64,000 bases of DNA from Streptomyces akebiae (GTDB taxonomy: Bacteria > Actinomycetota > Actinomycetes > Streptomycetales > Streptomycetaceae): assembly GCF_019599145.1 (NCBI RefSeq), contig NZ_CP080648.1, positions 228,177-292,176 on the forward strand, read 5' to 3'. Below the pieces are notes generated by a model. It saw only the letters and a list, made by a program, of their open reading frames with translations. It made no database searches and was not told the DNA's origin. Numbering within the stretch: the first letter of the stretch is position 1; each line of letters opens with the position of its first letter. This document shows positions 43,553 through 64,000 of this stretch, one piece after another. A program made the translations under genes and the position numbers.

Positions 43553-43985
43553 CTAGGTGGTCGCCGCACAGCCATGCCGACCAGACGCGGTCCGGGGGTA
43601 CGTGGCGGCCGGCCTGGAGTTCGTAGAACTCCGCGTCGATGGAGGACTTCGGCAGTTTGTCTGCGGCGGCCAGGTCGTCGTCGGTGGCGTCGTTGACGTA
43701 CAGCTCGGCAGCCGTCGCCGGGAGCTTCTCCGCGAACGCGGCGGCCTCTTCCACCTTCTGGTGGAACGTCATGACGGTCTTGAGGTTCCACTTCGCCGCG
43801 TGCTCAAGGAGCGCGGTCTGCAGGAGCGCCAGACGCCGGCCGCGCCGGGCTTCCTCGGACTCCCCGACGACGGGGGAGGGGTCGCGGATCTCCAGGACGT
43901 CGATCTCGAACCCGGCGAGGATCTCGCGCTCGATCGCCTCCGACAGCCCGAGCTCGGCGAGCCGCGTGCCGTACGTGTTCGTCAT
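43553..43985 (-). pseudogene. DEAD/DEAH helicase fragment (internal part)
   Basis: The minus frame reads LSEAIEREILAGFEIDVLEI, TVMTFHQKVEEAAAFAEKLP and ELQAGRHVPPDRVWSAWLCG. It is almost identical in DNA to 63,637-64,000 in the helicase at the window's right end. Homology stops abruptly at about 43,553 and 43,985, so both ends are broken. Unlike the other copy, it keeps a G in the GGGGAGGGG run near 43,876 and its frame is intact there. Confidence 0.85.
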
Positions 43986-51154: not shown

Positions 51155-51310
51155 CTACGTCCACTCCACGCCCAGTTTCCGCAGCGCGTCGAGCTGATCG
51201 GCCGTGAGTTTGTCGCGCCGGGTCTTGGTGTTGGAGACCCATACGCCCAGCTTGATGACTACAGGCTCCGGCTCGCCGTCGACTGCGATCTCTTCAGCGT
51301 GGCCTCGCGT
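51155..51310 (-). pseudogene. Helicase C-terminal tail remnant
   Basis: Ends ...EPVVIKLGVWVSNTKTRRDK then LTADQLDALRKLGVEWT and TAG at 51155. It closely matches the last ~50 residues of the helicase at 62,085-64,000 (KLGVWVSNTRARREKLTEEQ). Homology fades at about 51,310. Isolated last HA-type repeat with no helicase core. Confidence 0.78.
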
Positions 51311-51411
51311 GCGATCTCTCGGGTTGGTGTCGGTGTTGGTGAGAGTCGGTCGCGCTGGTCCAGGGGTGGGTGTTACGGGGCTGGTCAGCGGCTGTTTACG
51401 GGTGGGCAGGC

Positions 51412-51455
51412 CGCTGTCATGAGGTGAGAGATTAATGGGTGGGATCGCTGTCATG
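51412..51455. repeat. Repeated CGCTGTCATG, candidate left end of a TnsB-type element
   Basis: CGCTGTCATG occurs at 51412-51421 and 51446-51455, 34 bp apart in the same orientation, about 85-130 bp before the transposition operon. Mu/Tn7-like elements begin with TGT and carry repeated transposase-binding sites near their ends, so TGTCATG at 51416 is a candidate terminus. No matching inverted copy was found to the right by eye. Confidence 0.35.
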
Positions 51456-51539
51456 GGGCTTTATCGCATGGCAGCTGATGTTGTCTCAGGTTCGATAGTT
51501 CTTATGTGCTGAGGTTGGCCCGGTCGGTGTGATCGTGGG

Positions 51540-52769
51540 GTGGACCAAGAGGTAGGGGCCGGTCGTGGGCCCGTGCTGCCCAGGGGGTTGGTGGTGCGTC
51601 GTCTGCTGGAGCGGCAGCAGGCGGGGGAACTGGCCACGCGGCATGTGCGTGCGGTCGCGGAGACGGTGGGTGTCTCGGAGCGTACGGTGTGGCGCTGGCT
51701 GGAGCAGGCCAAGACGACCGGGCAGGTGGAGGCGCCGGTCCGGCAGGGGTATGCGGTGTCGGACGAGGTGTGGACGCTGCTGGGCGAGGTGGCAGGGAAT
51801 GTCGCTGAGCTGAGACGCCGGCTGGCCGCGGCTGGCGGGGCGTCGGTTCCGTCGGCGTCGACACTGCACCGGGTAATCCGCAGGGACCGCCGGGCGGGCC
51901 GGGCGTTGATGGTCGAGCGGGAGCACGTGGTGGCCGGGCCACGCAGGCCCGATCCGCTCAGCGAGCTCGGCCTGAACGTCGTGGCCGGCCAAGGCACAGG
52001 CGGGCAGGTGATCCTGCGGGAGCAGAAGCATCTGGCGCAGGTTCCGGTCCTGGTGCCGGGCGCGCAGGTGGTGCACACGTCCGCTGTGCGGTCGGTGCTG
52101 CGGACGGTCGCGCACGCGGCCGCGGTGGGGGCGGTGGTGTGTCTGTACGGCGACGCCGGCCAGGGCAAGACCGTCGCGCTGCAGTACGCCCTGTCCCAGC
52201 TGCCGCACCCGGCCCGGGTCCGCCGGGTCCATGTCGGTGTGCATCCGACGGTGCCGGAACTGCGCCGGGTGCTCGCGGACGCCCTCGAGCTGGGCAGGCG
52301 GCTGCCGCGCGGGGCGGTGGAGGCCGACCTGACGCTGGTGAACGCGCTACGGCAGCCCCGCGTGCTGGTGCTGGACGAGGCACAGCGTCTTCCGGGGCCG
52401 GCGCTGGAGTTTCTGCGCGGTCTGTGGGACCACCCGGACACGGACACGGCACTCGTGCTGGCGGGCGCGGGCAGCGAACGGGCGCTGCGCCGGGTGCCCG
52501 CGCTGGCCTCTCGGGTGCTGACCTGGGAGTTGGTGCCTCGTCTTCGCCCGGGCGAGGTGGCCGCAGTGATGGCGGCCTTCCACCCGCTGTGGGAGGACGT
52601 GAGCGAGGACGATGTCGCGTGGGTGGACGAGCATGTGGGCCACGGCAATTTCCGGACCTGGGCGAAGCTCACCTCGCACCTGACCGCCGAGATCTACGGC
52701 AAGAGCCGTGCGGTAGTGGACCGCCGGATGCTGGAGCGGGCCTGCGCACGGCTCATGGGGCCGCTGTGA
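51540..52769 (+). CDS. HTH-AAA ATPase fusion, TnsC/TniB-like with transposase-type N terminus
   Basis: A 409-residue protein in two parts. Residues ~18-125 are two helix-turn-helix units (VRAVAETVGVSERTVWRWLE; PSASTLHRVIRRDRR) that resemble the N terminus of the DDE transposase encoded next. Residues ~180-400 are an AAA ATPase: Walker A GDAGQGKT at 204-211, Walker B VLVLDEAQ near 278, and the tail FHPLWEDVSEDDVAWVDEHV then GHGNFRTWAKLTSHL, shared with the ATPase at 54,456. TnsC/TniB ATPases choose targets and activate the transposase; here the ATPase brings its own DNA-binding part. GTG 51540 is the earliest start; GTG 51591 is possible. It overlaps the next gene by 4 nt (GTGA). Confidence 0.78.
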   Translation: MDQEVGAGRGPVLPRGLVVRRLLERQQAGELATRHVRAVAETVGVSERTVWRWLEQAKTTGQVEAPVRQGYAVSDEVWTLLGEVAGNVAELRRRLAAAGGASVPSASTLHRVIRRDRRAGRALMVEREHVVAGPRRPDPLSELGLNVVAGQGTGGQVILREQKHLAQVPVLVPGAQVVHTSAVRSVLRTVAHAAAVGAVVCLYGDAGQGKTVALQYALSQLPHPARVRRVHVGVHPTVPELRRVLADALELGRRLPRGAVEADLTLVNALRQPRVLVLDEAQRLPGPALEFLRGLWDHPDTDTALVLAGAGSERALRRVPALASRVLTWELVPRLRPGEVAAVMAAFHPLWEDVSEDDVAWVDEHVGHGNFRTWAKLTSHLTAEIYGKSRAVVDRRMLERACARLMGPL

Positions 52770-54459
52770 CCGGCGCCTCCGGGATGGGAGAGGCTGGCAG
52801 CCACGAGGACGGGCACGCGCGGGGAGGTCTGCCTTCTTCCTCCCTGTCGGCGCTGCGCGGCCCTGCCGTGCGCCGGCTGCTCGCCCTGCGGCAGGACCAG
52901 AAACTGACGTCCCGCCATGTACGGCTGATGGCGGAGTCGTTGGAGGTGACCGAGCGCACGGTGTGGCGGTGGCTTGCCGCTGCCGAGCGTGACGAGTCCG
53001 CGGCTGCGGAGCCCGGGGCGCGGGCCCAGAGCAAGGGCGCTTCTCCGTCACTCCGGAGGTGCGCCGCCTGCTGGCCTTGTGGAAGGGCAACGTCGCGGCG
53101 GTCCATCGTGAGCTGACCGCTCGCGCGGCCAAGGGCGAGGGGGAGCCTCCTCCGTCGATCCCGACGCTGCACCGGGCGATCCAGCGGGATCTGACGCCGG
53201 GGGAGCGGGCGGGGCTTGCGGGAGGGGAACGTGCGGCACGCAAGCACGATGTGTTCCTGGCCCGGGCGCGCGGCTGGCGCAACCAGGTGTGGGAGACCGA
53301 CCACGTCCAAGCGGCGGTGCTGGTCGACGTCGAGGGCAAGGCCCGCAGGCCGTGGATCACCTGGTTCACCGACTGCGCGACGAACGCGATCACCGGTGTC
53401 GCGGTCACGCCGGGGGATCCGTCGCGGGAGTCGGTACTGGCCGCGCTGCGCTCCGCGGTCCTGCGCGAGGACCCCTACGGCCCGATCGGCGGCCTGCCCG
53501 AGAAGGTACGGGTGGACCGCGGTAAGGACTTCCTGTCCCGGACGGTGACCGCCGCGTTCGATCTCCTCGACGTGACGGTGGAGGACCTGCCCGCCTACAC
53601 CCCCCACCTCAAGGGCACCGTGGAGGGCCTGAACCGGGCGGTGGAGAGTATGTTCCTGGCCGCGCTGCCCGGCTATGCCCGCCAGCCGCGCCCCGGCAAA
53701 CGGGCTTCCCGCCCGAAGGACGAAGTGCTGCTCGGCTTCGAGGACTTCACCGCCCGGCTGCTGGCCTGGACGCTCTGGTGGAACACCGAGCACCGCCCGG
53801 CGCCGTTGCGGGGAAAGACTCCGCTTGAGGCGTGGCAGGGGGATCCCACTCCGCTGCGGGACGTGCCCGCGACGGATCTGTGGACGTTCACCCTGGAGGA
53901 CGCCGGCACCCGCACGCTGACCACCCGCGGCATCCGCTTCAGGAAACGCGACTACGTGGGGCCGTGGATGACCGGCCAGACCGGGATCCAGGTCCGCATC
54001 CGCTTCATGCCCCACCACGACCACCGCATCGAGGTGTACCACGCGGCCACTGGCCGCTATCTGGGTCCCGCGGACCTGGCCGACCAGGCCACCGAGGAAC
54101 AGGTCAGCGCCGTACGGCGAGCACGGGCCGCCCGTGCGCGCCGTCTGAAGAAGGACCTGGAGGCTTCCCAGCGCGAGCGCTACGCCGCCGCCATCCAGCC
54201 CGAGGCACCTCAGCGGCTCGGCGCGCTGACCACCGCGCAGGCCGAGGCCGAACTCGCCCAGACTGCCGGGACCGACCTCGCGCAGCTCGCAATGCCGGAC
54301 CTCATCCCGCCCGCCGCGCCCCCGGCCGACTGGCGTACCCCGCCTTCCCTCGCCACCCGGACCACGCCCTGCCTGCCTGCTCCCGTCCCGTCCGAACCTG
54401 CCTCCGACGGCCCACTCGAACCCAATGCACAGACTGCTGAAGACGGAGACGCCTCGTGA
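52766..54459 (+). pseudogene. Mu/TnsB-like DDE transposase with one-base frameshift
   Basis: GTG 52766 overlaps the previous stop. The first frame gives the HTH (RQDQKLTSRHVRLMAESLEV) to AQSKG at about 53,035; after a missing base the next frame continues FSVTPEVRRLLALWKGNVAA, TLHRAIQRDL and the DDE core: Asp at 53299 (WETDHVQ), Asp at 53515 (VRVDRGKDF) and Glu at 53623 (GTVEGLNRAVE). Then comes the Mu-type C-terminal barrel (TRGIRFRKRDYVGPWMTGQT) and a tail rich in Ala and Pro that could contact the ATPase. Adding one C in GGGCGC restores KGRFSVTPEV. So it was, or with corrected sequence still is, a complete ~565-residue transposase. Confidence 0.85.
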
Positions 54460-55198
54460 CCGCGGCCACCTACCAGTACGTCGACCTGCCCGATGCGTCC
54501 GTGGTCACCACCCGTGCCCTGCTCACCGCCCGGGAGAACATCTCCGACACCGTCGCCGCCCGCGCCATGATGTGCATCCACGGCGGCGCCGGCTTCGGCA
54601 AGACCCTCGCCGTCAACATCTGCCTGCGGGGACTCGAGCCTCACGAGGACGTCCGCAAGATCACTTTCCGGGCCCGTCCCACCGCCCGTGCGGTGCGCTA
54701 CGAGCTGTTCACCGCGCTCGACCTGGCCGGTGAACCGCCGCGTCATCCCAGTGAGTTCGACCGCCTGCTGAAGACGGCCCTGGCTGAACGTCCCCGCACC
54801 TTCCTCGTGGACGAGGCCCAGTGGCTCAACGGGGAGGCATTCGAGTACTTCCGCTATCTGTGGGACGAACCCTCAACCCAGCTCGCGATCATCTTCGTCG
54901 GCGGGGAGGGCTGCCACACCGTGCTGCGCCGTGAACCGATGCTGTCCTCCCGCATCTTCATCTGGCAGCACTTCACCCGCCTCACCCCCAGCGAGGTCCT
55001 GGAGGCCATCCCGCTGTTTCATCCGGTCTGGGTCGACGCCGACCCCGATGACATCACGTTCGCCGACCAGCACGCCGCGCACGGCAATTTCCGCGCCTGG
55101 GCCCAGTTGACTGCCCACACCCGCACTGCCCTGGCCCGCACCGGCCGCCCCGGGTGGATCAGGAGCTGCTGCGCTGGGCCTTCAGCCGCCTCGCCTGA
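54456..55198 (+). pseudogene. TnsC/TniB-like AAA ATPase with late frameshift
   Basis: GTG 54456 overlaps the transposase stop by 4 nt. Walker A GGAGFGKT at residues 43-50, Walker B TFLVDEAQ at 115-122, and the family tail FHPVWVDADPDDITFADQHA then HGNFRAWAQLTAHT. Near 55,152 a base is missing: the natural end, VDQELLRWAFSRLA with TGA at 55196-55198, is in another frame, and the present frame instead runs on into the next gene, making a 621-residue fusion to 56321. ATPase and arm are otherwise whole. In related elements such proteins form target-bound filaments that recruit the transposase. Confidence 0.83.
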
Positions 55199-55211
55199 CC
55201 ACCACGTCACC

Positions 55212-56321
55212 ATGCCGCCAGCCGTGCCACCGTCCGTCGCCGTGGTCCTCGACCCGGGCGACGACGCGATCCACACGCACACCGCCCTGGCCGCCCACCA
55301 TCCGCCGTCCGGCCGGATCACCCTGCACCCCGGCCCGGGCACCACCAGCGAAACCGGCCTCGCCCACGACCTTCTGGCCGCTCTGGGCAAACCGCCCCTG
55401 CTCCCGGGCCGTTTCCCCGCCGGCCGTCAGCCCGCCTGGGAAGCCGCCACCGCCTGGATCAACGCCCTGCCCGTGAACCGGCTGACCGTCCTGCGCGCCC
55501 ACCGCCTCACCGCCCGCCGCACGATGCGCCTCCTGGAGCTGCGCGCCCTGACCGGCATTCACCTGACCCTGGTCTGCCACCGCCCTCACCTGCCCGCCGC
55601 CCTGCACCAGGCCCTGCAGACGGCCGACTTCGCCATCACCGCCGACTTCCAGGCCGCCCGCCGCCACTACTACGGCACAACCGCTCCCGTACCCCGGCCT
55701 GCGGAGGAGCCCGCCCGGCCGGCCAACCGGTGGCTCACCCTGCCCGCACTGGACCGCCTGGTCTCCTACGACAGCCCTGCCCCCTGTACCGCCCCGTGCG
55801 TACCGCCGCCGATCACCTTCCGGCACCGCCCGCCACCGACACCCCTCACCGAGCAGGCAGTACAGGAAGTCGCCCGACGCCTCTCCACCGTGACCGCCCA
55901 CCCCCGCCTGGCCGCCGCCCTCGCCGCCGCCCTCTTTACCGGCGCATCCATCCAGCAGCTCGCCACCGCCCGCCCCGGCGACTACGACGCCGCCGCGGCC
56001 ACCCTGGCCCTGCACGACCGGACCCGCTACACCGACGGCTGCGCCTCGCACCGGGTGCCGCCGTGGGCACGCGTCTCCCTGAAGGCCGCCGTGTCCTTCG
56101 CTCAGCTCGCGCCCGGCCAGGACCAGCATCTGCTGGCCGGCCCCCACGACCGCGTCCACCTGCTGCGCATGGCGGAGGCGGCCAGGCTCCGCCCGCCGCA
56201 GCCGCCTGTCGGTCAGCGCACCGGCCCTGTCGGCCGCATCCAGTGGGACTGGCGCGAACGAAAGGAAGCACAGTGCTACGACACGATGCTGACACGGCAC
56301 CAGATGCCGCCCTCGCTCTGA
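55212..56321 (+). CDS. Unrecognised transposition-associated protein: degenerate ATPase-like plus integrase-like parts
   Basis: ATG 55212 gives MPPAVPPSVAVVLDPGDDAI, 369 residues, 13 nt after the ATPase's natural stop. The N-terminal half has an ATPase-like order (LAHDLLAALGKPPLLPG, LTVLRAHRLTARRTMRLLEL, GIHLTLVCHR) but no Walker A, and Asp-Glu of Walker B is replaced. The C-terminal half (LTEQAVQEVARRLSTVTAHP, AAALFTGASIQQLATARPGD, TLALHDRTRY, HRVPPWARVSLKAAV) recalls the tyrosine-recombinase fold, but the Arg of TGLR is missing and no His-x-x-Arg/Tyr set is visible. Probably non-catalytic; a target-selection or end-recognition role is inference from its place in the operon. It ends 19 nt from convergent tpg. 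Confidence 0.6.
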   Translation: MPPAVPPSVAVVLDPGDDAIHTHTALAAHHPPSGRITLHPGPGTTSETGLAHDLLAALGKPPLLPGRFPAGRQPAWEAATAWINALPVNRLTVLRAHRLTARRTMRLLELRALTGIHLTLVCHRPHLPAALHQALQTADFAITADFQAARRHYYGTTAPVPRPAEEPARPANRWLTLPALDRLVSYDSPAPCTAPCVPPPITFRHRPPPTPLTEQAVQEVARRLSTVTAHPRLAAALAAALFTGASIQQLATARPGDYDAAAATLALHDRTRYTDGCASHRVPPWARVSLKAAVSFAQLAPGQDQHLLAGPHDRVHLLRMAEAARLRPPQPPVGQRTGPVGRIQWDWRERKEAQCYDTMLTRHQMPPSL

Positions 56322-56340
56322 GCTCGAACCCGCGTGCACG

Positions 56341-56895
56341 TCAGTCGATGGAGAAAACGGCGAACTCCACGTCGGTGAAGGCGATTCCGAGCCCATGGGC
56401 ACGCAGGCCTCCGTCCCGGAAGTAGGCATGCCCCAAAGCACGGGCGAGGATCACCATCTGCTGCTGCTCACCCCCGCCGGCGTCCCGGGCGGCGAACAGC
56501 TCGCGGGCCACTTCTCCCGACAGGTACTGGGTGATCAGCCGTACCCGCGGATCGTCCGACGAGCCTGCCGGAGCGGCGAAACCGAACCGCGCCCTGGTGT
56601 GGAAGACAAACCCGTCGGCCTCGGCCCGGGCCCGTCGGCGGGCGCGCACCAGGGGCTGCCACCGTGCCCTGACGGCCTCATCGATCAACCCCGCATGCAC
56701 AGCACTTGGACGGCGACGCATTCCCGGCCGGGTCGTGACCCACCTTTGTACCGTGCGCTGGGAGATCCCCAGGAGGACAGCCATGTTCTTCGTGGAGCCC
56801 TTCTGCGCCCTGAGCAGGAAACGCACAGCGGCGTCACCAGTAGGCACCGGACGGCTCAGCAGCGCTCGCTCAAGCCCTTTGACGATCTCTCCCAT
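56341..56895 (-). CDS. tpg: Telomere terminal protein Tpg
   Basis: A 184-residue protein, the normal Tpg length. It has an HTH (MAVLLGISQRTVQRWVTTRP), the RARWQPLVRARRRAR segment, FVFHTRARFGFAAPAGSSDD, LFAARDAGGGEQQQMVILAR and the C-terminal AYFRDGGLRAHGLGIAFTDV block, all in the order seen in Streptomyces Tpg. Tpg is covalently bound to the 5' ends of linear replicons and primes end patching. The gene is intact, starting at ATG 56893-56895 after GGGGAGG. It normally follows tap in one operon; here tap is broken and lies on the other side, in the opposite orientation, so this Tpg stands without its usual partner. Confidence 0.87.
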   Translation of the reverse strand: MGEIVKGLERALLSRPVPTGDAAVRFLLRAQKGSTKNMAVLLGISQRTVQRWVTTRPGMRRRPSAVHAGLIDEAVRARWQPLVRARRRARAEADGFVFHTRARFGFAAPAGSSDDPRVRLITQYLSGEVARELFAARDAGGGEQQQMVILARALGHAYFRDGGLRAHGLGIAFTDVEFAVFSID

Positions 56896-56956
56896 GTCCT
56901 CCCCCCGAGCCGTTCTGCCGCCGCACAGCGGCCGTCTGCTCCCTCAGGTCTTTCAC

Positions 56957-56980
56957 ACTGGCCCGTTGCCTTTGGCCAGT
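56957..56980. promoter_or_regulatory. Inverted repeat upstream of tpg
   Basis: ACTGGCC (56957-56963) and GGCCAGT (56974-56980) form a 7-bp stem with a 10-nt loop about 60 nt upstream of the tpg start. Could be an operator or a small fold-back; nothing more can be said. Confidence 0.3.
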
Positions 56981-57120
56981 TCCGGCGTACGCGAGACATC
57001 CCTGCGGGTCCTCGGCTACTGACTCTGCTGTCCTATCTCGAGCCTGAGCTCGTCTCACTGAACCTGATCGCCGCTCCGTAGGGTTCGCGCGGCACCCAGC
57101 TGGTCGAGCAGCGTCCGTCT

Positions 57121-57169
57121 TTAAGAAAAGCTAGCTAACTTCTACTAGGTTTCTATAGTCTTCTCCTCG
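57121..57169 (+). promoter_or_regulatory. AT-rich promoter, probably giving a leaderless transcript
   Basis: The stretch 57121-57160 is unusually AT-rich for this DNA. TATAGT at 57154-57159 is a good -10 box only 9 nt before the GTG at 57169, and no ribosome site precedes that GTG. A start at or near the GTG would make a leaderless mRNA, common in actinomycetes. The -35 box is not obvious. Confidence 0.5.
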
Positions 57170-57525
57170 TGAACTCCTACAGCGAGGACCTCGCCAGCGT
57201 CGAGCGTGAACTCCGTGAAGCCGAACTCGAGCGTGACCGACTCGGAGCTCATATCGAGGGGCTCAAGGCCAAGCGGGACGCCTTCAAGAAGCTGAGTGCA
57301 GCGGTGTCCGAGCCGGGGTCGGCGGTCCAAGACCTCACCAAGGCGGATGCCATCGTCAAGATCCTCAGGGCGTCGCCTCAGCCCATGTCTCTCGGTGATA
57401 TTGCGGATGCTTTGACCGCCGGGGGCAAGCAAGCCAACCGCAACGGCGTCTCCGTCTACATAGACGGTCTGCTTAAGGCCGGCCGCGTCGTCCGTGTTGC
57501 CCGGAACCAGTACCGCGACGCCTGA
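57169..57525 (+). CDS. Small coiled-coil/winged-helix protein
   Basis: 118 residues. The first ~45 form a strong coiled coil (LASVERELREAELERDRLGA, HIEGLKAKRDAFKKL); residues ~55-115 form a winged helix (KADAIVKILRASPQPMSLGD, IADALTAGGKQ, YIDGLLKAGRVVRVARNQYR). Architecture is like the passenger protein at 47,678 but sequence is different. Likely a DNA-binding regulator; target unknown. Its promoter lies directly upstream and it sits between tpg and the tap remnant. Confidence 0.7.
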   Translation: MNSYSEDLASVERELREAELERDRLGAHIEGLKAKRDAFKKLSAAVSEPGSAVQDLTKADAIVKILRASPQPMSLGDIADALTAGGKQANRNGVSVYIDGLLKAGRVVRVARNQYRDA

Positions 57526-57554
57526 CAACTTCACTGAGGTGCGCCCATAGTTCG

Positions 57555-58560
57555 GTGAGCGACACCCGGCACTGGGCCGACGCCGCCCAGCTGCCGCCGG
57601 CAGACCTCGCGCGGATGCTGGGCACCTATGCGGCCCGGGTGATGACGCCGCGCGGCTCCACCGCCGTCACGGGCCTGGAGCTGATGACCGCGCTGCATCG
57701 GCCGACCCGCGCCTCCGAGCCGGACGCGACGGGTAGGCGGCATTCCGAGCACAACCCCGGTTCGCTGGGCAAGGACCCGGTGGACTGCGCGCCGTGCGAG
57801 GCCCCCGACGGGCACCCACAGCTGAAGGATCTGCCGCGCTTCCACCGCCGCACCCGGCCGAGGTCCTGGTGGAGGAGGCGTACGACTGGGCACGGCCGCT
57901 CACCGACGCCGAATGCACCCTTCGGCACCTGGTGGGCGTCGACGTGAACATGGCCTTCGCCGCCGGCGCCAACGGCCTCCTGGTCGGCCTCGGTGCGCCG
58001 TCGTACATCAAAGCGCCGGTGTTCGACGCGAAGTTGCCCGGTGCGTGGCTGGTCGACCTTTCCCACGTCGACCTGTTGAGGGTGAAGGTCGCCAAGGACA
58101 AGTGGGCGGACCTGGACGCTGACCTGCTGCCTAGCCCGTTCACGCCGAAGGGTGAGCGCCCGACGGTGGTGGCCTGGTACGCCACGCCGGCCGTGGCGTA
58201 CGCGGTGGAGCTCGGCTACGACGTCACGCCGATCGAGGCGTGGGTGCGCTACGACAACGGCCGTTACCTGGACGGCTGGTACAACCGGCTGCGCGACGCC
58301 TACCTCGCCACGATGGCCGACATCGGCGTGCACGCGGACATGCCGCCGGCCGACTTCCTCGCGGCGATGGACGGCTACCGGCAGCGTGACCCGCAGCTGG
58401 CGATCGTGGTGTCGGCGATCAAGGCGACCGTGAAGGACGGTATCGGCAAGCTGCGCGAGCGCCCTCGCGGGGAGGGCTGGAAGCCCGGGCAGCCGTGGCG
58501 GGCCCTTGCCCGGCCCACCTGGCGCCCGGACATCCGCGTCTCAGGTGCGGGAGCGGCAGC
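57555..58560 (+). pseudogene. tap: Telomere-associated protein Tap, truncated and frameshifted
   Basis: The first frame (GTG 57555) reads RMLGTYAARVMTPRGSTAVT, GLELMTALHRPTR, to LPRFHRRT near 57,850; after a one-base loss it continues AEVLVEEAYDWARPLTDAEC, LVGVDVNMAFAAGANGLLVG, LPGAWLVDLSHVD, PTVVAWYATPAVAYAVELGY and TVKDGIGKLRERPRGEGWKP, ending in RPTWRPDIR near 58,545. This is the middle of Tap, the protein that brings Tpg to telomere 3' overhangs. The N-terminal HTH and the last ~150 residues are missing. It has the strand opposite to tpg. Confidence 0.82.
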
Positions 58561-58602
58561 TGGACTTCGGGGACGTTGAGGTACTTGGCCATCCTCGTGG
58601 CG

Positions 58603-58634
58603 GTGCCCCGGGCTGCCACCGGAGCCCGGGGCAC
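58603..58634 (-). terminator. Terminator after the 30-residue peptide gene
   Basis: Perfect 12-bp stem (58603-58614 with 58623-58634) and an 8-nt loop, seven bases beyond the stop of the small minus-strand gene at 58641. It could also end the tap remnant's transcript. Confidence 0.75.
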
Positions 58635-58640
58635 TGACCG

Positions 58641-58733
58641 TTACCTGCCTCGGATTGAGGTGATGAGGTTGATGAGGGCGGCCATCAAGGACGTGGTGCC
58701 GCTGATGATCGCGGCGATCTCGCTGGTGTTCAT
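58641..58733 (-). CDS. 30-residue membrane peptide
   Basis: ATG 58733 encodes MNTSEIAAIISGTTSLMAAL followed by INLITSIRGR: one hydrophobic helix with a positive C-terminal end. A strong terminator follows at once, which argues for a real transcript. The frame is open upstream to 58841 but that part has non-coding character. Related in style to the other small membrane proteins of this block. Confidence 0.45.
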   Translation of the reverse strand: MNTSEIAAIISGTTSLMAALINLITSIRGR

Positions 58734-58865
58734 GGGGGCCTTTCGGGTGCCGGGGCCCGGCCCGGCCCGGAGCCGGGCGGGCGGTCGGCTCGGCCCATAA
58801 CCAGCAGTCGCTGCCCGGCTCCATGATGCACGTCCCTTCATGAAGCCGCCTATCGCCCAGGAGGG

Positions 58866-59351
58866 TTATCGGCGCAGGGCCCAGGTCATGACGCGGGCGA
58901 GGCCCCAGGCGGCGCCGGCGGCGGGGAACAGCGGGAGGGCCGCGGCGAGGTTGCCGAGCAGGATCAACACGACGGCGATGCCGAAAACGATCGTGCCGAT
59001 CACGGTGAAGACGTAGAAGGCGATGCGCGGCGCGACCCGGGCGGCCTTCTCCCGCAGCTGGCGGCGGCGGTGGGCGCGGCGCAGGTGGGCGACTTGGCGT
59101 ACGCGTCCCCGTGCGGCCCGCACGTCGTTCTTCTTGACGTCGAGGTCGGCCTCCATCGCGGAGAGCAGCGCGGAGAACGCCTCCGTCACGTCGTGGGCGT
59201 CGAGGCCGGTGTCCACCGTGGCGAGGAGCGCGGCAATGGCGTCGGTGACCTCGTCGTCCTCCTTGGTGTCGACGGCCGTCTTCAGCGCGGCGAGCCGCAT
59301 GTCGAAGCCGGTCTCGATGACCTCGATCCGGTGGGCGGGGGAGGCGCTCAT
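58866..59351 (-). CDS. Membrane protein with coiled-coil N terminus
   Basis: 161 residues. Residues 1-95 are polar and helical (RLAALKTAVDTKEDDEVTDA, LLSAMEADLDVKKNDVRAAR), then two transmembrane helices, FYVFTVIGTIVFGIAVVLILL and a shorter AAALPLFPAAGAAWGLARVM, with a short positive end. ATG 59351 follows AGGAGC. No family recognised. It lies downstream of a terminator and so has its own promoter. Confidence 0.72.
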   Translation of the reverse strand: MSASPAHRIEVIETGFDMRLAALKTAVDTKEDDEVTDAIAALLATVDTGLDAHDVTEAFSALLSAMEADLDVKKNDVRAARGRVRQVAHLRRAHRRRQLREKAARVAPRIAFYVFTVIGTIVFGIAVVLILLGNLAAALPLFPAAGAAWGLARVMTWALRR

Positions 59352-59397
59352 GATGGTGCTCCTGTGCTCGGTTTCGTCCTACGCCCGATACGACGAA

Positions 59398-59435
59398 GGG
59401 CCGGGACCCGACTGTGAAGTCGCAGGTCCCGGCCC
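59398..59435 (-). terminator. Terminator between two small membrane-protein genes
   Basis: GGGCCGGGACC (59398-59408) pairs with GGTCCCGGCCC (59425-59435), with an inner CGACT/AGTCG helix in the loop. It lies after the stop of the minus-strand gene at 59507. Confidence 0.72.
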
Positions 59436-59506
59436 GTACGGCGATCGTCTAACGGAAGCGTCCTACCATGCGCGCTCCTCTCGACGTGGCATCAGGTCGC
59501 ATGCTG

Positions 59507-59821
59507 CTAAGCCCTCTTGGGCTCCGACGTAACGGGTGTACGGGCGGGCTGTGACCTGCGCGGGGTAAGCCCCGCCGACTGCGGAGCCTTGAGGGTCGGG
59601 TCGTCCCACACTGCTACGGGAGTGCGGGCGGCCCGAATGCGCCTGACGATGCTGGCGATGAACGACGTCACGGCAGTGACGACGATCGAGACGATGAACA
59701 AGATGCGGTTGAGCACGGGGTTGGTCTCCTTCTCGATGGGCTTGTAATCCGTGGTCACGTTCTTGGTCGTGCTTCTGTCCTTCTTGGTCGTGGGGTTCAG
59801 GGCGATCGGCGATAGCCCCAC
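59507..59821 (-). CDS. Small single-pass membrane protein
   Basis: 104 residues from GTG 59821. A Lys/Thr-rich N terminus (TTKKDRSTTKNVTTDYKP) precedes one hydrophobic helix, LNRILFIVSIVVTAVTSFIA, and a basic Pro-rich tail (RRIRAARTP; RRSQPARTPVTSEPKRA). Low-complexity ends make the start uncertain. A terminator follows and a sigma-like gene precedes it by 78 nt. Function unknown. Confidence 0.5.
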   Translation of the reverse strand: MGLSPIALNPTTKKDRSTTKNVTTDYKPIEKETNPVLNRILFIVSIVVTAVTSFIASIVRRIRAARTPVAVWDDPTLKAPQSAGLTPRRSQPARTPVTSEPKRA

Positions 59822-59899
59822 TCGGGCCAGCCGATGAACGCGGAGGGGATCGGACCGATCCGCGCCATCCGTTGGCCCGCGAAGGGATACCCCCAGGCC

Positions 59900-60535
59900 C
59901 TAGTCCTGCAGGTGCTCACGCAGGCGCTGACGCACCTTTTCGTCCTTGAGGGCGGCCTGCGCCAGGGACAGGTCCTTGCGTACCGAGGTGACCTTGATGC
60001 CCAGCATCTCGGCGATCTCGGCGTTCTCGAACTTGCCGACGTGACGCAGCACGTAGGCCTCGTGCTGCCGCTCGGGCAGCACCTCACTCAGGACGGCCCG
60101 GACGCGGAGGTACCCCTCCGTCGCCTCGACGACATCCGGGTCCGTCCACTTCTCCGGCACGGCGCCGTGCTTCTCCAGCGCACGCGCCTCCGCATGAATA
60201 CGGCGCAGTTCGTCCACGGCCCGCCTGGAGAGAATGGTGGCGATGAACCCGCTGGGGTTCGTGATGACCTTCGGGTACGTGGGGAGGGTTTTGACGATCT
60301 GCTCGATGCCGATCTGCAGGACGTCCTCGCCGTGGTGGTACGACACGATGCGCCTGGTGAGCGCGAGCCAGTGCGACCTGTGCGTGACGAGGAGCTCCAT
60401 GACCGCCTCCTTCGCCTCCTCTGCGGTCATGGCGCGTTTCTTGGCACGGTTCTGGAACAGCTCGGGGATCACTCGCGCCCGCTTACGCGGTCGCCCTGAC
60501 CCTGCGACTGACTCGGTCACGTTGTTCTTCTCCAT
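59900..60535 (-). CDS. Sigma-70-family RNA polymerase sigma factor-like protein
   Basis: 211 residues from ATG 60535. A region-2-like helix set is visible (HRSHWLALTRRIVSYHHGED, VLQIGIEQIVKTLP, ILSRRAVDELRRIHAEARAL) and a region-4 HTH at the C terminus (GKFENAEIAEMLGIKVTSVR, KDLSLAQAAL). Such proteins direct RNA polymerase to a small promoter set. No anti-sigma factor with a usual domain is adjacent, though small membrane proteins are. The longer open frame to 60,670 is rejected for non-coding composition. Confidence 0.75.
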   Translation of the reverse strand: MEKNNVTESVAGSGRPRKRARVIPELFQNRAKKRAMTAEEAKEAVMELLVTHRSHWLALTRRIVSYHHGEDVLQIGIEQIVKTLPTYPKVITNPSGFIATILSRRAVDELRRIHAEARALEKHGAVPEKWTDPDVVEATEGYLRVRAVLSEVLPERQHEAYVLRHVGKFENAEIAEMLGIKVTSVRKDLSLAQAALKDEKVRQRLREHLQD

Positions 60536-60703
60536 CGATCTTCTGGTGACGCCGCCACACCGACCGAGCGCCACCGGGCCGCTACTGCCCCTACCAACCA
60601 CGACGTCGTGGCTGCGGCACGAAGTGTGAACTGGCAGGTCACAGCGGGAGCTTCCGGGCACGCTGCGCACCAGCTCATGCGCCTGGACGGCCGGATACGC
60701 GTC

Positions 60704-60734
60704 GGCGGGCCGGGACGAAGGCCACTGGCCCGCC
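60704..60734 (-). terminator. Terminator after the 68-residue membrane-protein gene
   Basis: GGCGGGCC (60704-60711) pairs with GGCCCGCC (60727-60734), 12 nt past the stop at 60746. Confidence 0.7.
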
Positions 60735-60745
60735 GCCCCCGTGTC

Positions 60746-60952
60746 TCACGTCAGGGCCGGGACCAGGACGGCCAGCAGCGCGATGAAGAGCGTCATGACA
60801 CTGAAGAACACGAAGCTGCCGCGGCCGATGGCCGTGGAGACCGGTGCTCCTCCCTCGCGGGCGACGTTGTATCCGATCAGGCCTGCGATGGCGGAGACCG
60901 CGGCGAGGGTGACCAGTGCCAGAAGCAGGGTCAGGAGGTTCTGCGTGCTCAC
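60746..60952 (-). CDS. 68-residue two-helix membrane protein
   Basis: GTG 60952 encodes a short start (STQNL) and two hydrophobic helices: LLTLLLALVTLAAVSAIAGL near the N terminus and FVFFSVMTLFIALLAVLVPA at the end, joined by a small polar loop with NVAREGG. The start overlaps the upstream sigma-like gene's stop by 4 nt (GTGA), so it is translationally coupled to it. A membrane partner for that factor is a reasonable inference. Confidence 0.7.
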   Translation of the reverse strand: MSTQNLLTLLLALVTLAAVSAIAGLIGYNVAREGGAPVSTAIGRGSFVFFSVMTLFIALLAVLVPALT

Positions 60953-61794
60953 GCCGCACCCCGCTGGTTCTGCCGACGGGTGACGGCCTTGGTGTGCAGC
61001 TGTTCCGGGATCCAGATCCGCTTCTCCCGGGCCGCCTGGTACAGGACCGTCCGGAAGCGCGACCTGCGCTGGCGGGCGGCGGCGGGGGAGAGCTTCAACC
61101 GCTCGGCGATCTCAGCGTCGGGAAAGCCCATGACCGTCAGACGTACGACCGCCTGCGTGTGCGGCGCCTGCTCATCGAGGATGTCCTCGAAGTCCGTACT
61201 GAACACCTCCGAGTCGATCTCGTAGCTGGCGGCCTCGAGCAGTCCGCCGATGCCGGCTTCGTTCGCGGCGTCCTCGGTGAAGTCGTACACGGCATGCAGA
61301 TGGGCCCAGTGGACCCGCTGCCTGGCCCATCTCACGTACGCGCGCCGGAACACCCACACGCACTGGCCGATGAAGTACGACATCAGGCTGCAGGCGCCGC
61401 GGGGTCCGTGGTGGTCGGCCTTCCAGCCCTGTCCACGCTGCAGGTCGCGATGGAACTTACGTGTCGCTTCGGTGAGGACGTCGACCATGATGATGTCCCG
61501 CTCGAGAGGGCTGCTGCGCAGCAGGCTCATGTCGTCCTCGTGGACGAAGAACTTCCAGCCCCGCTTCTTGCACTGCCTCACGGCAAGCCGGGCAAGCGTG
61601 CCCTCGCGGAGCATGCCGAGCAGGCGCGGCTCGGCCTCCCGGATCAGCTCGATCTCGAACACCTCGTAGGCCAGCCCTTCGAAGCCGCAGCTGGCCAGCT
61701 CCTCGATCCGCGCGGCGTCCTGCCCGATCCGGGCCGTGTGCTCCCCGCCCAGCACCGCGTCGATGGTCTCGAAGATCTCTACATCTACGCTCAC
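60949..61794 (-). CDS. Sigma-factor-like protein, 281 residues
   Basis: GTG 61794 follows GAGGGGG by ~8 nt. The C-terminal part is a region-4-type HTH (AVVRLTVMGFPDAEIAERLK, LSPAAARQRRSRFRTVLYQA). The middle holds aromatic-rich helices (LMSYFIGQCVWVFRRAYVRW) that may be a divergent region 2; the first 100 residues are not recognised. It is coupled to a small membrane protein. It may be a specialised sigma factor or only an HTH regulator. Confidence 0.65.
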   Translation of the reverse strand: MSVDVEIFETIDAVLGGEHTARIGQDAARIEELASCGFEGLAYEVFEIELIREAEPRLLGMLREGTLARLAVRQCKKRGWKFFVHEDDMSLLRSSPLERDIIMVDVLTEATRKFHRDLQRGQGWKADHHGPRGACSLMSYFIGQCVWVFRRAYVRWARQRVHWAHLHAVYDFTEDAANEAGIGGLLEAASYEIDSEVFSTDFEDILDEQAPHTQAVVRLTVMGFPDAEIAERLKLSPAAARQRRSRFRTVLYQAAREKRIWIPEQLHTKAVTRRQNQRGAA

Positions 61795-62084
61795 GGCATA
61801 AACCCCCTCGTCCTGGCCTGCTTCAGACCTCCACCGGTTGCTTTAAATGCGCGCGATGAAGCTGCGAAGCAGATCGCTTGTTGTACGGGGTTGTGTGCAG
61901 GCGAAGTTGGTGAACGTGACACACCAGCTGAAAATCTTTTTTCGCGAGGCTCAAATACGAGCTTGCGGGCCCGTTATTGCTGCACGGACCCGCAACCGAA
62001 ACCCACTATCCGGCCATGGGCCGGGCGCCCCTGTGTCCCCATCCTGAGGGGCCAGAGCCGCGCCTCACCTGCAGGCGGGCTCGC
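61795..62084. other. Intergenic region upstream of the sigma-like operon
   Basis: About 290 bp with no supported gene. AT-rich patches (TTTAAAT near 61,842; AAAATCTTTTTT near 61,931) stand out against the GC-rich surroundings and could hold the promoter of the minus-strand sigma-like operon and the 3' end of the helicase transcript. TTGCGGG and CCCGCAA near 61,953-61,994 can pair across a long loop; weak terminator candidate. Confidence 0.4.
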
Positions 62085-64000
62085 TCACGCCCACTGGATG
62101 CCCAGCTTGCGCAGCGCGTCCAGCTGCTCCTCCGTGAGCTTCTCCCGCCTGGCCCGGGTGTTGGAGACCCATACGCCCAGCTTCACGGTCACCGGCTCCG
62201 CCTCGCCGGCGACCGCGATCTCTTCGCTGTGGCCGCGGGGCACCGGCTTCTGGCCCTCCCGTTTGATCCACTGCGCGAGGGCTGCCATGCCTCGCTGGAA
62301 CGCCTGTTGCGCCTTGCTCGGGCCCTTCGCCGCCGTACGGCCGGCCGCTGCTGCGGGGGCGGCAGTCGGTGCCACGAGCGGTGCGATGCCCAGTGTGGTG
62401 AGCCGTTCCTGTTGGTTGGTGGGTAGCTGGGCCCAGGTGCCCGGCTGCTTCTGCTGCTGGAGCCACTTGCCGATGTCGTCGCCGTCCATCAGCACGCCGG
62501 GTGCGATGTCGGGGAGTTGGCCGTCGGCGTCGACGAGGTCGGCGAGGACGCGGTAGTGGCGTTGCCAGTCCAGTGGCCACGGGCAGTCCCAGTCCGGGTC
62601 GATCTCGGTCAGCTGCGCCGCGCGCCGGCGGCCCGCTCCGGGTCCTTGCCCAGGCCGTTCTTCGCGCCCTTGCGCCGGAGGTTGGCCATGTGCTGCCCGA
62701 CGGGCACCATCGCCTCGCCTTCGCCCCACAACTGATCCTGGCGCGGGGCGAGGTGTCCGGTGGCCCGCCGGTAGGACCGGAGCGCGGCGAGCTTGTTCTC
62801 CCACGCCTCCTCGCCCGGCTCCCAGACCATCCCGGCCTCTGGCGCGTTCAGGAGGACCTTGCGCCGCTCCTCCAGCTCACCGGCCCGCAAGGCCTTGCGC
62901 TGCTGGTGCACCCACCGCCCAAGCGGAAACGCCTTCGTCGCGCCGACTTCGACCTCGACGTCGTAGGGCACGGCGTAGAGGCCGGTGATCTGATTCTCCG
63001 CCCGCCAGCGGATCAGGGCCTGGTAGCCCTCGAGCCATACCAGGGATTCGGGCCGGTAGACCCGGGTGCGCAGGAACGCCGCGATGGTCGCGGCGTCGCG
63101 CGGGCTGGAGAAGTGCAGCAGGGCCGATTCTGCCGCGGCGTCGGTTTCGTTCTGCTCTTGGTCCTCGCCGTCGCTCGCGCCGCCGGCCCCGATGATCCGC
63201 CCGTCCTCGTCGCGCTGGAGGTGGACCTGGCGCTTGCCGCTGGTGAGGGCGCGGGAGGCGAGCTGCTCGACCAGGCGTTCATCGTGGCTGCGCAGGCCCT
63301 GGAGCACGGCCACGAGCGGCTTGAAGCTGGCGGAGGCGACCATGTTGGTGGGGTCTTCGCCGGGCTCGAGGAACACCGGCACGATGATCCTGGCGACCTT
63401 GGTGCTGCCGTCTTTGTTGAGCCGGAGGGCGCGGCCGATGTTCTGCACGATCTCGACCTGGGAGCCGCGGGTGTCGGCGAAGCAGACGGCTTCGACGCCC
63501 CGTTCGCCGGTGATGTCGACGCCTTCTCCGAGCACGCGAACGCTGGCGAGGAAGGCGCGGTGGACTCGGCGCCCGGCTGCGTCGATGCCGCCTGCGAACT
63601 GCCTGATGACCTCGCGCCGCTCGGTCACGAGGTGGTCCCCGCACAGCCACGCCGACCACACCCGGTCCGGCGGCACGTGGCGGCCGGCCTCGAGTTCGTA
63701 GAACTCCGCGTTGATGGAGGACTTCGGCAGCTTGTCGGCGGCGGCCAGGTCGTCGTCGGTGGCGTCGTTCATGTACAGCTCGGCAGCCGTCGCCGGGAGC
63801 TTCTCCGCGAACGCGGCGGCCTCTTCCACCTTCTGGTGGAACGTCATGACGGTCTTGAGGTTCCACTTCGCCGCGTGTTCCAGGAGCGCGGTCTGCAGGA
63901 GCGCCAGACGCCGGCCGCGCCGGGCTTCCTCGGACTCCCCGACGACGGGGGAGGGTCGCGGATCTCCAGGACGTCGATCTCGAACCCGGCGAGGATCTCC
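62085..64000 (-). pseudogene. Telomeric-type DEAD/DEAH helicase with HA repeats, frameshifted; 5' end outside
   Basis: The minus strand carries the second RecA-like lobe of an SF2 helicase (VLGEGVDITGERGVEAVCFA, VEIVQNIGRALRLN as motif VI) followed by three helicase-associated (HA) repeats: RWVHQQRKALRAGELEERRK, DWQRHYRVLADLVDADGQLP and the end KLGVWVSNTRARREKLTEEQ. This set resembles TtrA-like helicases at Streptomyces chromosome and plasmid ends. Two frame breaks are seen: one near 63,954, where a G present in the 43.9-kb copy is missing, and one near 62,620-62,640, where the frame ending [10 protein letters not shown] must change to reach AAQLTEIDPDWDCPWPL. So it is a pseudogene, or the sequence has errors. 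Confidence 0.82.

What the first reader, a model, noticed from the sequence alone, without database searches (positions are those of the whole stretch)
51412..58560. TnsB/TnsC-like transposition operon joined to telomere genes: candidate telomeric transposon
Seen: four overlapping or abutting plus-strand genes (HTH-AAA fusion, Mu/TnsB-like DDE transposase, AAA ATPase, degenerate ATPase/integrase-like protein), then 19 nt away a convergent intact tpg, then a tap remnant. Known: Mu/Tn7-type elements use a DDE transposase with an AAA target-selection ATPase; Tpg and Tap maintain Streptomyces telomeres. I recall reports of Tn7-like elements carrying terminal-protein genes and living at telomeres of linear bacterial replicons, but cannot check whether this is one. 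Inference: this is a telomere-targeting or telomere-carrying transposon, with TGTCATG near 51,416 as one end. No tnsA, no tniQ and no CRISPR genes are present, and two ATPases plus an unrecognised fourth protein make the gene set unusual.
Basis: partly seen in the sequence, partly recalled or inferred. Interest (0 to 1): 0.87.

Follow-up and report, generated by a model that had tools for sequence, protein, structure and literature searches.

The report
One-ended transposon that carries a telomere
This is a mobile element at the tips of linear Streptomyces chromosomes and plasmids that has one transposon end facing inwards and a telomere as its other end, so that each jump appears to replace the tip of a chromosome; telomeric transposons are already published as a kind, and this is a well-resolved member.

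Summary
The window is the right end of a 292-kb plasmid contig. The reported operon is real: it is the inner part of a 12.7-kb terminal segment ~99.9% identical at all four ends of this genome's two contigs.

The segment starts at one sharp junction, 5'-TGCGATCTCTCGG at 51310, not at TGTCATG 51416. No inverted partner end was found. In 5 of 8 within-genome pairs examined, shared terminal sequence begins within 7 nt of such an end. Of 23 plasmid records with >=60% identity to the transposase, 23 point to the nearest end and 21 lie within 30 kb of it. The own junctions cut a helicase gene and a dinB-like gene, whose outer parts were not found beyond them.

Best reading: a Mu/TnsB-type telomeric transposon with one end, its other end being the telomere. 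Inferred: it moves by one-ended replicative transposition that replaces the target's tip, with g4 (ATPase-like fold without ATPase motifs plus recombinase-like fold) as candidate target selector.

Telomeric transposons are published (Hsieh et al. 2025, not readable here): new member of a known kind.

The parts
51310..64000 (+). whole element as far as the contig reaches: inner transposon end to the (unassembled) telomere
   Evidence: ~99.9% identical at all four contig ends; chromosome-plasmid identity starts at 51309/51310
51158..51307 (-). remnant of the plasmid's earlier tip gene (helicase, last 50 codons), the cut target flanking the element
   Evidence: tblastn 74% to residues 593-642 of the terminal helicase
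51310..51539 (+). single transposon end: terminal TGCGATCTCTCGGGTT, then direct repeats (TGTC/TGTT words at 51328, 51371, 51393, 51415, 51449; three of them 22 nt apart)
   Evidence: conserved border; repeats
51540..52769 (+). g1: g2-like HTH joined to a g3-like AAA ATPase
   Evidence: Pfam AAA_22 E=1e-13; 39% to g3 over 241 aa and 45% to g2 N-terminus over 112 aa
52766..54459 (+). g2: Mu/TnsB-type DDE transposase (frame broken at 53032 in this copy, open in both chromosome copies)
   Evidence: phrog_310 E=9.4e-60; PADLOC TnsB_0_V-K E=8.5e-16; D179, D251, E287 invariant in 19 sequences
54456..55198 (+). g3: TnsC/MuB-type AAA ATPase (frame broken at 55147 in this copy, open in both chromosome copies)
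   Evidence: AAA_22 E=1.2e-15; phrog_296 E=7.1e-18; Walker motifs
55212..56321 (+). g4: TnsC/MuB-like fold without Walker motifs joined to a tyrosine-recombinase-like fold; candidate target selector
56341..56895 (-). tpg, terminal protein
   Evidence: NF047541 176.8 bits, cut-off 90
57169..57525 (+). 118-aa protein of unknown function
   Evidence: ORF; no curated family reached
57555..58579 (+). tap remnant in two frames, without the first ~294 and last ~95 profile positions
   Evidence: NF047542
58866..59351 (-). 161-aa protein, probably membrane-bound
   Evidence: weak T2SSF match below cut-off
59900..60670 (-). ECF-type sigma factor-like protein
   Evidence: TIGR02937 50.6 bits, cut-off 42.9
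60949..61794 (-). sigma-factor-like protein
   Evidence: TIGR02937 25.8 bits, below cut-off 42.9
62085..64000 (-). terminal helicase gene (helicase-associated domain), cut off by the contig end
   Evidence: PF03457 E=8.8e-20; open to the contig end in L013

Best explanation
Window 51310-64000 is one copy of a one-ended telomeric transposon. Its only transposon end (TGCGATCTCTCGG plus an array of transposase-site-like repeats) faces the centre of the replicon; its other end is the telomere. Likely mechanism (inferred): g2 binds the repeats and cuts and joins that single end; g3, perhaps with g1, forms the TnsC/MuB-type complex on target DNA; g4 brings it to subtelomeric DNA in the place of TniQ/TnsD. 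With no TnsA-like nuclease recognised, one 3' end is joined to the target, and replication from the target 3'-OH copies the element out to its telomere. The target arm gains a new tip with tpg and telomere, and its old outer piece is lost. Copying between the two arms of a replicon by recombination then gives longer terminal inverted repeats. Shown: the sharp single end, multi-copy terminal identity, position and orientation at ends, truncated target genes, and telomere palindromes at the outer end of several relatives. Inferred: the chemistry, the replication step, the role of g4 and the loss of the old tip.
For: Sharp border: 12 of 13 relatives aligned from their g1 start share it with unrelated flanks; over 50 end sites mean pairwise identity is 0.27-0.32 outside and 0.81 in the first ten bases inside (partly by construction, see full report). 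No inverted partner in the own terminal segment at up to 3 mismatches in 16. Identity within genomes starts at the end in 5 of 8 pairs, among them the two ends of one chromosome, G013. Orientation 23 of 23, within 30 kb 21 of 23 against 6.1 expected. Cut target genes: helicase in 9 of 53 flanks, dinB-like gene at the own chromosome junction. Archetypal palindromes at the tips of L083, L113, L118, L130. A 1,658-bp version, end plus telomere without transposase (L130). DDE residues invariant in 19 of 19; purifying selection on g1 to g4.
Against: The telomere of this genome is not in the assembly: all four contig ends stop inside the helicase gene within 33 bp of each other. The tips of L111 and L117 show no dense palindromes (L117 by eye). 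3 of 8 within-genome pairs do not start at the end. 9 of 46 assessable loci lack a convergent tpg. A remnant (L085) lies about 0.9 Mb inside a 2.67-Mb contig. Movement has not been observed; the role of g4 rests on fold resemblance.
Confidence: 0.85

Rival explanations
1. An ordinary two-ended Mu/Tn7-like transposon that inserts near telomeres and whose right end was missed; the telomere beyond it belongs to the host.
For: Right ends of this superfamily can differ from left ends (recalled). Similarity after tpg fades within about 150 bp between distant relatives.
Against: Identity between replicons runs to both record ends in NBC_01727 and to the contig ends here. No inverted end found. The outer parts of the cut target genes were not found on the far side. 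L130 has the end 1,658 bp from the tip.
Confidence: 0.08
2. Telomere exchange by homologous recombination or break-induced replication, with the operon as a passenger.
For: Such exchange is the published view for Streptomyces (PMC7205883, passages). Own repeats extend 3.9 kb (chromosome) and 6.4 kb (plasmid) beyond the element, and NBC_01237 and G109 pairs extend beyond it, so recombination does act.
Against: Recombination needs homology at the border, but flanks are unrelated and the border falls at the same base of the element in many loci.
Confidence: 0.04
3. A domesticated telomere module: the transposition genes no longer move the element but serve telomere upkeep.
For: Usually at ends and beside tpg; g1 and g4 are unusual for a transposon; the plasmid copies of g2 and g3 are frame-broken.
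Against: End and DDE triad are conserved, junctions are many and at different sites, and copies on different replicons are near-identical, which implies recent movement. Tips without g2 persist (L130 to L132).
Confidence: 0.03

Closest known systems
Telomeric transposons (Hsieh et al., Science 2025, eadp1973; paper not held; known here from its title, from one citing passage in PMC12669027, and from recall)
   Same: Transposon at the ends of linear bacterial replicons; the citing passage says a CAST associated with telomeric transposons lacks TniQ-TnsD, and none was recognised here.
   Different: No CRISPR genes recognised here. Whether the g1-g4 set, the single TGCG end or the g4 fusion is described there could not be checked.
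Tn7-like transposons and CASTs, type V-K TnsB closest in PADLOC
   Same: TnsB-type DDE transposase, TnsC-type ATPase, repeated sites in the end.
   Different: No TnsA, no TniQ/TnsD recognised; one end instead of two; end TGCG (Tn7-like ends begin TGT, recalled).
Phage Mu transposition (MuA/MuB)
   Same: g2 matches the phage transposase family phrog_310 (E=9.4e-60), g1 and g3 match phrog_296, a DNA transposition protein; g4 N-terminal fold is TnsC/MuB-like.
   Different: No phage genes recognised in the ORFs scanned; one end; telomere genes.
TnsF target selector of Tn6022 (PMC10293859, abstract, section 11 and passages seen)
   Same: An inactivated tyrosine-recombinase fold in a transposon operon, there shown to select the target.
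   Different: TnsF has zinc fingers and works with TniQ; g4 has a TnsC-like N-terminal fold and no TniQ was recognised. Analogy, not membership.
Streptomyces Tap/Tpg telomeres and turnover of terminal inverted repeats (PMC7205883, passages seen)
   Same: tpg, palindromic telomeres, telomere exchange between chromosome and plasmids.
   Different: That paper explains exchange by recombination; the word-start 'transpos' does not occur in its main text. Here a transposon end marks the exchange point.

Membership tests
Telomeric transposons (Hsieh et al. 2025) | located at the ends of linear replicons | tested here: met
   four own ends; 21 of 23 close relatives within 30 kb of a plasmid record end
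Telomeric transposons (Hsieh et al. 2025) | carries telomere functions | tested here: met
   tpg; palindromic tips in relatives; own telomere not assembled
Telomeric transposons (Hsieh et al. 2025) | sequence relation to the published families | not testable with these tools
   paper and supplements not held
Tn7-like transposon | TnsB-type DDE transposase | tested here: met
Tn7-like transposon | TnsC-type AAA ATPase | tested here: met
   g3: ShTnsC E=0.0036 by profile; phrog_296
Tn7-like transposon | TniQ/TnsD family target protein | tested here: not met
   none recognised in the 10 ORFs scanned nor in product names around 8 annotated or partly annotated relatives (L114 has no annotation)
Tn7-like transposon | TnsA nuclease (absent in some subfamilies, recalled) | tested here: not met
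   as above
Tn7-like transposon | two ends in inverted orientation | tested here: not met
   a strongly diverged right end cannot be excluded
Mu-like phage | MuA/MuB-type transposition proteins | tested here: met
Mu-like phage | phage structural genes | tested here: inconclusive
   none recognised in the 10 ORFs scanned with Pfam and NCBIfam; only 5 proteins were run against PHROGs
TnsF target selector | inactivated tyrosine-recombinase fold | tested here: inconclusive
TnsF target selector | zinc-finger N-terminus and TniQ partner | tested here: not met
   N-terminal TnsC/MuB-like fold instead; no TniQ recognised
Tpg terminal protein | NCBIfam telomere_Tpg above cut-off | tested here: met
   176.8 bits against 90
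Tap telomere-associated protein | NCBIfam telomere_Tap above cut-off | tested here: not met
   140.2 and 380.4 bits in two frames, cut-off 600: a remnant

The most novel reading that the evidence does not exclude
A transposon with a single end that uses replication out to its telomere in place of a second end, guided to chromosome tips by a protein that joins an ATPase fold without ATPase motifs to an inactivated tyrosine recombinase; its repeated one-ended insertion at both tips creates the terminal inverted repeats of some Streptomyces replicons from scratch.
Probability: 0.4. Interest if true: 0.85.

Novelty: new member of a known kind. Interest (0 to 1): 0.62.

Why it matters
Streptomyces tips turn over fast and telomeres move between chromosomes and plasmids, which has been put down to recombination (PMC7205883, passages). 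A transposon end at the exact exchange point gives such events an enzyme and a sequence tag. In G013 the repeat shared by the two chromosome ends starts at that tag, so the origin of terminal inverted repeats becomes testable by gene removal. A natural system that replaces chromosome tips might also serve in building linear replicons.

Tried and rejected
Rejected: TGTCATG 51416 as the end (one of several subterminal repeats). A right end just after tpg (no common sharp border; similarity is lost at different points in different subgroups). An assembly artefact as the source of the four copies: chromosome copies and plasmid copies share replicon-specific differences at 53032, 55147, 57980-57981, 60673 and 63952, and other genomes show the same layout. 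G007 as an internal counter-example: it has copies at 4.98 and 5.28 Mb of one 9.96-Mb contig, but the first runs from a truncated g1 straight into GC-loop palindromes and the contig has an N run, so I read it as joined replicon ends; not proven, and no dense palindromes were found below the second copy (L125). A tabulation of end type against g1 type is confounded because the g2 N-terminus matches g1; only intact g1 genes are used. A profile search of g4 against PDB sequences gave nothing convincing. TniQ-like folds do not appear in the fold lists for g4; that does not exclude them.

Mended on re-check: the query called tap is the longest ORF of L005, which proved to be an antisense frame over a tap-tpg operon; its strand labels are reversed and I take no tap count in relatives from it. 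The Tap remnant and the intact operon were then tested properly.

Rows dropped: of 55 end matches 3 secondary matches (L032 5152, L037 8435, L058 2695) and 2 without flank were left out for (50 used); 52 were used. Helicase count: 53 flanks over 100 bp, of which 9 have the gene to within 16 nt of the junction (window, L019, L030, L039, L051, L053, L112, L114, L115; L051 and L112 at under 50% identity); L037 and L077 have pieces nearby and are not counted. One search used the 60 listed rows of the 77 records, best place per record; related plasmids were not thinned. tpg count: of 72 loci 37 yes, 9 no, 2 contigs too short, 24 without a g4 match. Pairs of different strains (NBC_00455/01023, NBC_00466/01023) are not among the 8.

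Papers: searches. Seen: PMC12669027 (passages), PMC13228271 (one reference entry), PMC10293859 (outline with abstract, section 11, passages), PMC7205883 (passages). Hsieh et al. 2025: nothing seen but its title in reference lists.
Full report
WHERE IT IS. The window is the last 64 kb of contig C2 (292,176 bp) of a two-contig genome; the other contig has 10,257,202 bp. The relatives found by protein are nearly all Streptomyces, so I take the host to be one. A DNA search of the own genome with 51400-58600 finds four ~100% copies, one near each end of both contigs and each pointing outwards. Oriented with the tip on the right, the chromosome's two ends share 16.6 kb and the plasmid's share 19.1 kb, while chromosome and plasmid share the last 12.7 kb, at 99.9%. 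Most of the few differences are single-base indels in homopolymers; several separate chromosome copies from plasmid copies.

THE INNER END. Chromosome and plasmid become identical at window 51309 and are unrelated just inside it. Thirteen relatives were aligned from their g1 start, without use of the end motif: 12 share the border 5'-TGCG at 51310 with unrelated flanks, and L026 has no such end. Over 50 sites found with the end motif, mean pairwise identity is 0.27-0.32 in the four bins outside, 0.81 in the first ten bases and 0.84 in the next ten inside. The inside values are raised by the motif used to find the sites (16 bases, one mismatch); the outside values and the 0.70 at bases 20-30 inside are not chosen in this way. 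The end carries direct repeats: CTGTC[AG]TG averages 1.17 per end on the plus strand, 0 on the minus strand and 0.04 in shuffles, over 52 ends. In the window TGTC/TGTT words lie at 51328, 51371, 51393, 51415 and 51449, three of them 22 nt apart.

ONE END ONLY. A scan for the inverted partner with up to three mismatches in 16 finds none in the shared terminal segment of the four own ends; in 72 relatives it finds five minus-strand matches, all with two mismatches. Beyond tpg, similarity fades within about 150 bp between distant relatives and continues within subgroups, without a common sharp border.

PAIRS WITHIN ONE GENOME. I examined eight. Five begin at the element end: own chromosome and plasmid; NBC_01727, two plasmids, 16,219 bp at 100% from TGCGATC to both record ends; NBC_01306, chromosome-size contig and plasmid-size contig, 11,884 bp at 100% to the end of the fetched stretch, from 3 nt before TGCG; G013, the two ends of one 9.17-Mb contig, about 10.98 kb, from 6-7 nt before TGCG; G007, 1,247 bp from a variant end. 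Two pairs share more than the element (NBC_01237, G109). One, NBC_01078, starts 1,026 nt inside it, although its partner plasmid has the proper end. In G013 the repeat shared by the chromosome ends starts at the element end: the terminal repeat is the element.

POSITION AND ORIENTATION. 77 plasmid records match g2 at E<=1e-60; 60 were listed. Of these, 23 have at least 60% identity: 23 of 23 are transcribed towards the nearest record end, and 21 of 23 lie within 30 kb of it, against 6.1 expected for random places. Of the other 37, 28 lie within 30 kb and 23 point to the nearest end. Four chromosome-size records (L066, L076, L081, L083) have g2 about 16, 13, 36 and 7 kb from an end, pointing to it. 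L085 is a remnant about 0.9 Mb inside a 2.67-Mb contig. Most other loci are draft contigs that tell little about position.

GENE ORDER. In 37 of 46 assessable loci from genome contigs, and in 6 of 6 plasmid loci with a g4 match, a convergent tpg follows g4. The nine without are L028, L033, L045, L049, L063, L064, L066, L081 and L083. In L033 and L036 a different tpg, about 41% identical, lies elsewhere.

TARGETS. In 9 of 53 flanks the helicase gene typical of these tips reaches within 16 nt of the junction, its C-terminal part left on the inner side, cut at different places. This includes the window, with the last 50 codons at 51158-51307. The chromosome's junction lies in a dinB-like gene (identity as a Y-family polymerase recalled from its motifs, not tested by a family model): the intact homologue in L109 has 353 codons from its first ATG, and in the 60 kb of the C1 right end only residues 118-310 are matched, starting at the junction. 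Its missing part was not found beyond the element in that stretch. So the tip beyond each target appears to have been replaced.

THE OTHER END IS A TELOMERE. L083 (chromosome) begins, read inwards, CCCGCGGAGCGGGTACC with a run of GC-loop hairpins; L113 and L118 are similar, with 5 to 8 such hairpins in the last 300 bp, as described for archetypal telomeres (PMC7205883). L130 has the TGCG end only 1,658 bp from such a tip, with none of g1 to g4. L111 and L117 have no dense palindromes at the record end, so either their telomeres are of another type or the records are short. In this genome the contigs stop inside the helicase gene at all four ends, so its own telomere is unseen.

MECHANISM. With one end and no TnsA-like nuclease recognised, a single strand transfer followed by replication to the telomere is the simplest route (probability about 0.6). 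It explains why one end suffices, why copies stay in the donor, why target genes lose their outer parts, and why the same 12.7 kb caps four arms. Longer repeats within a replicon need later recombination, as proposed in PMC7205883.

NOVELTY. Telomeric transposons are published (Hsieh et al. 2025), but the paper is not held; the search for its number finds two held papers that cite it. One says a CAST associated with telomeric transposons lacks TniQ-TnsD. I therefore file this as a new member of a known kind and leave open whether g4, the TGCG end or the origin of the terminal repeats is new.

Noticed in passing
G000:C2:47359-50232 (L005) and C1:780776-781750 (L006): The plasmid has an intact tap-tpg operon about 47 kb from its left end, besides the element's tpg and tap remnant. 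A further tap-like stretch lies on the chromosome and was not tested.
   Followed up: partly
window 43555-43980: Fragment of a helicase gene, 97.7% identical over 128 aa to the terminal helicase and reaching beyond the point where the contigs end: perhaps a relic of an earlier tip.
   Followed up: partly
L111/L112 22148-23590; L118 17210-20204; L127 to L129 16227-19228: A recurring set of tyrosine recombinase, small HTH protein and a further protein (integrase or hypothetical) lies inside several elements of this group, where g3 is missing or broken.
   Followed up: no
L115 23649-26585; L127 7655-8173; L128 and L129 about 22.8-25.8 kb: Genes annotated as ABC-three component system or Pycsar effector lie in or beside these terminal segments.
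   Followed up: no
L038 position 1 and L050 position 2: Draft contigs start at or one base before the element end, as expected if the element is a multi-copy repeat that stops short-read assembly.
   Followed up: no
L130, and L131/L132: Tips with a TGCG-type end but no match to g1-g4: possible non-autonomous telomeric elements, one of them only 1,658 bp long.
   Followed up: partly
H63 to H100: More distant g2 relatives (50-60% identity), some on Rhodococcus, Nocardia, Arthrobacter, Embleya and Kitasatospora records, also often lie near record ends, but orientation is mixed (23 of 37 to the nearest end): possibly other families of the kind.
   Followed up: no
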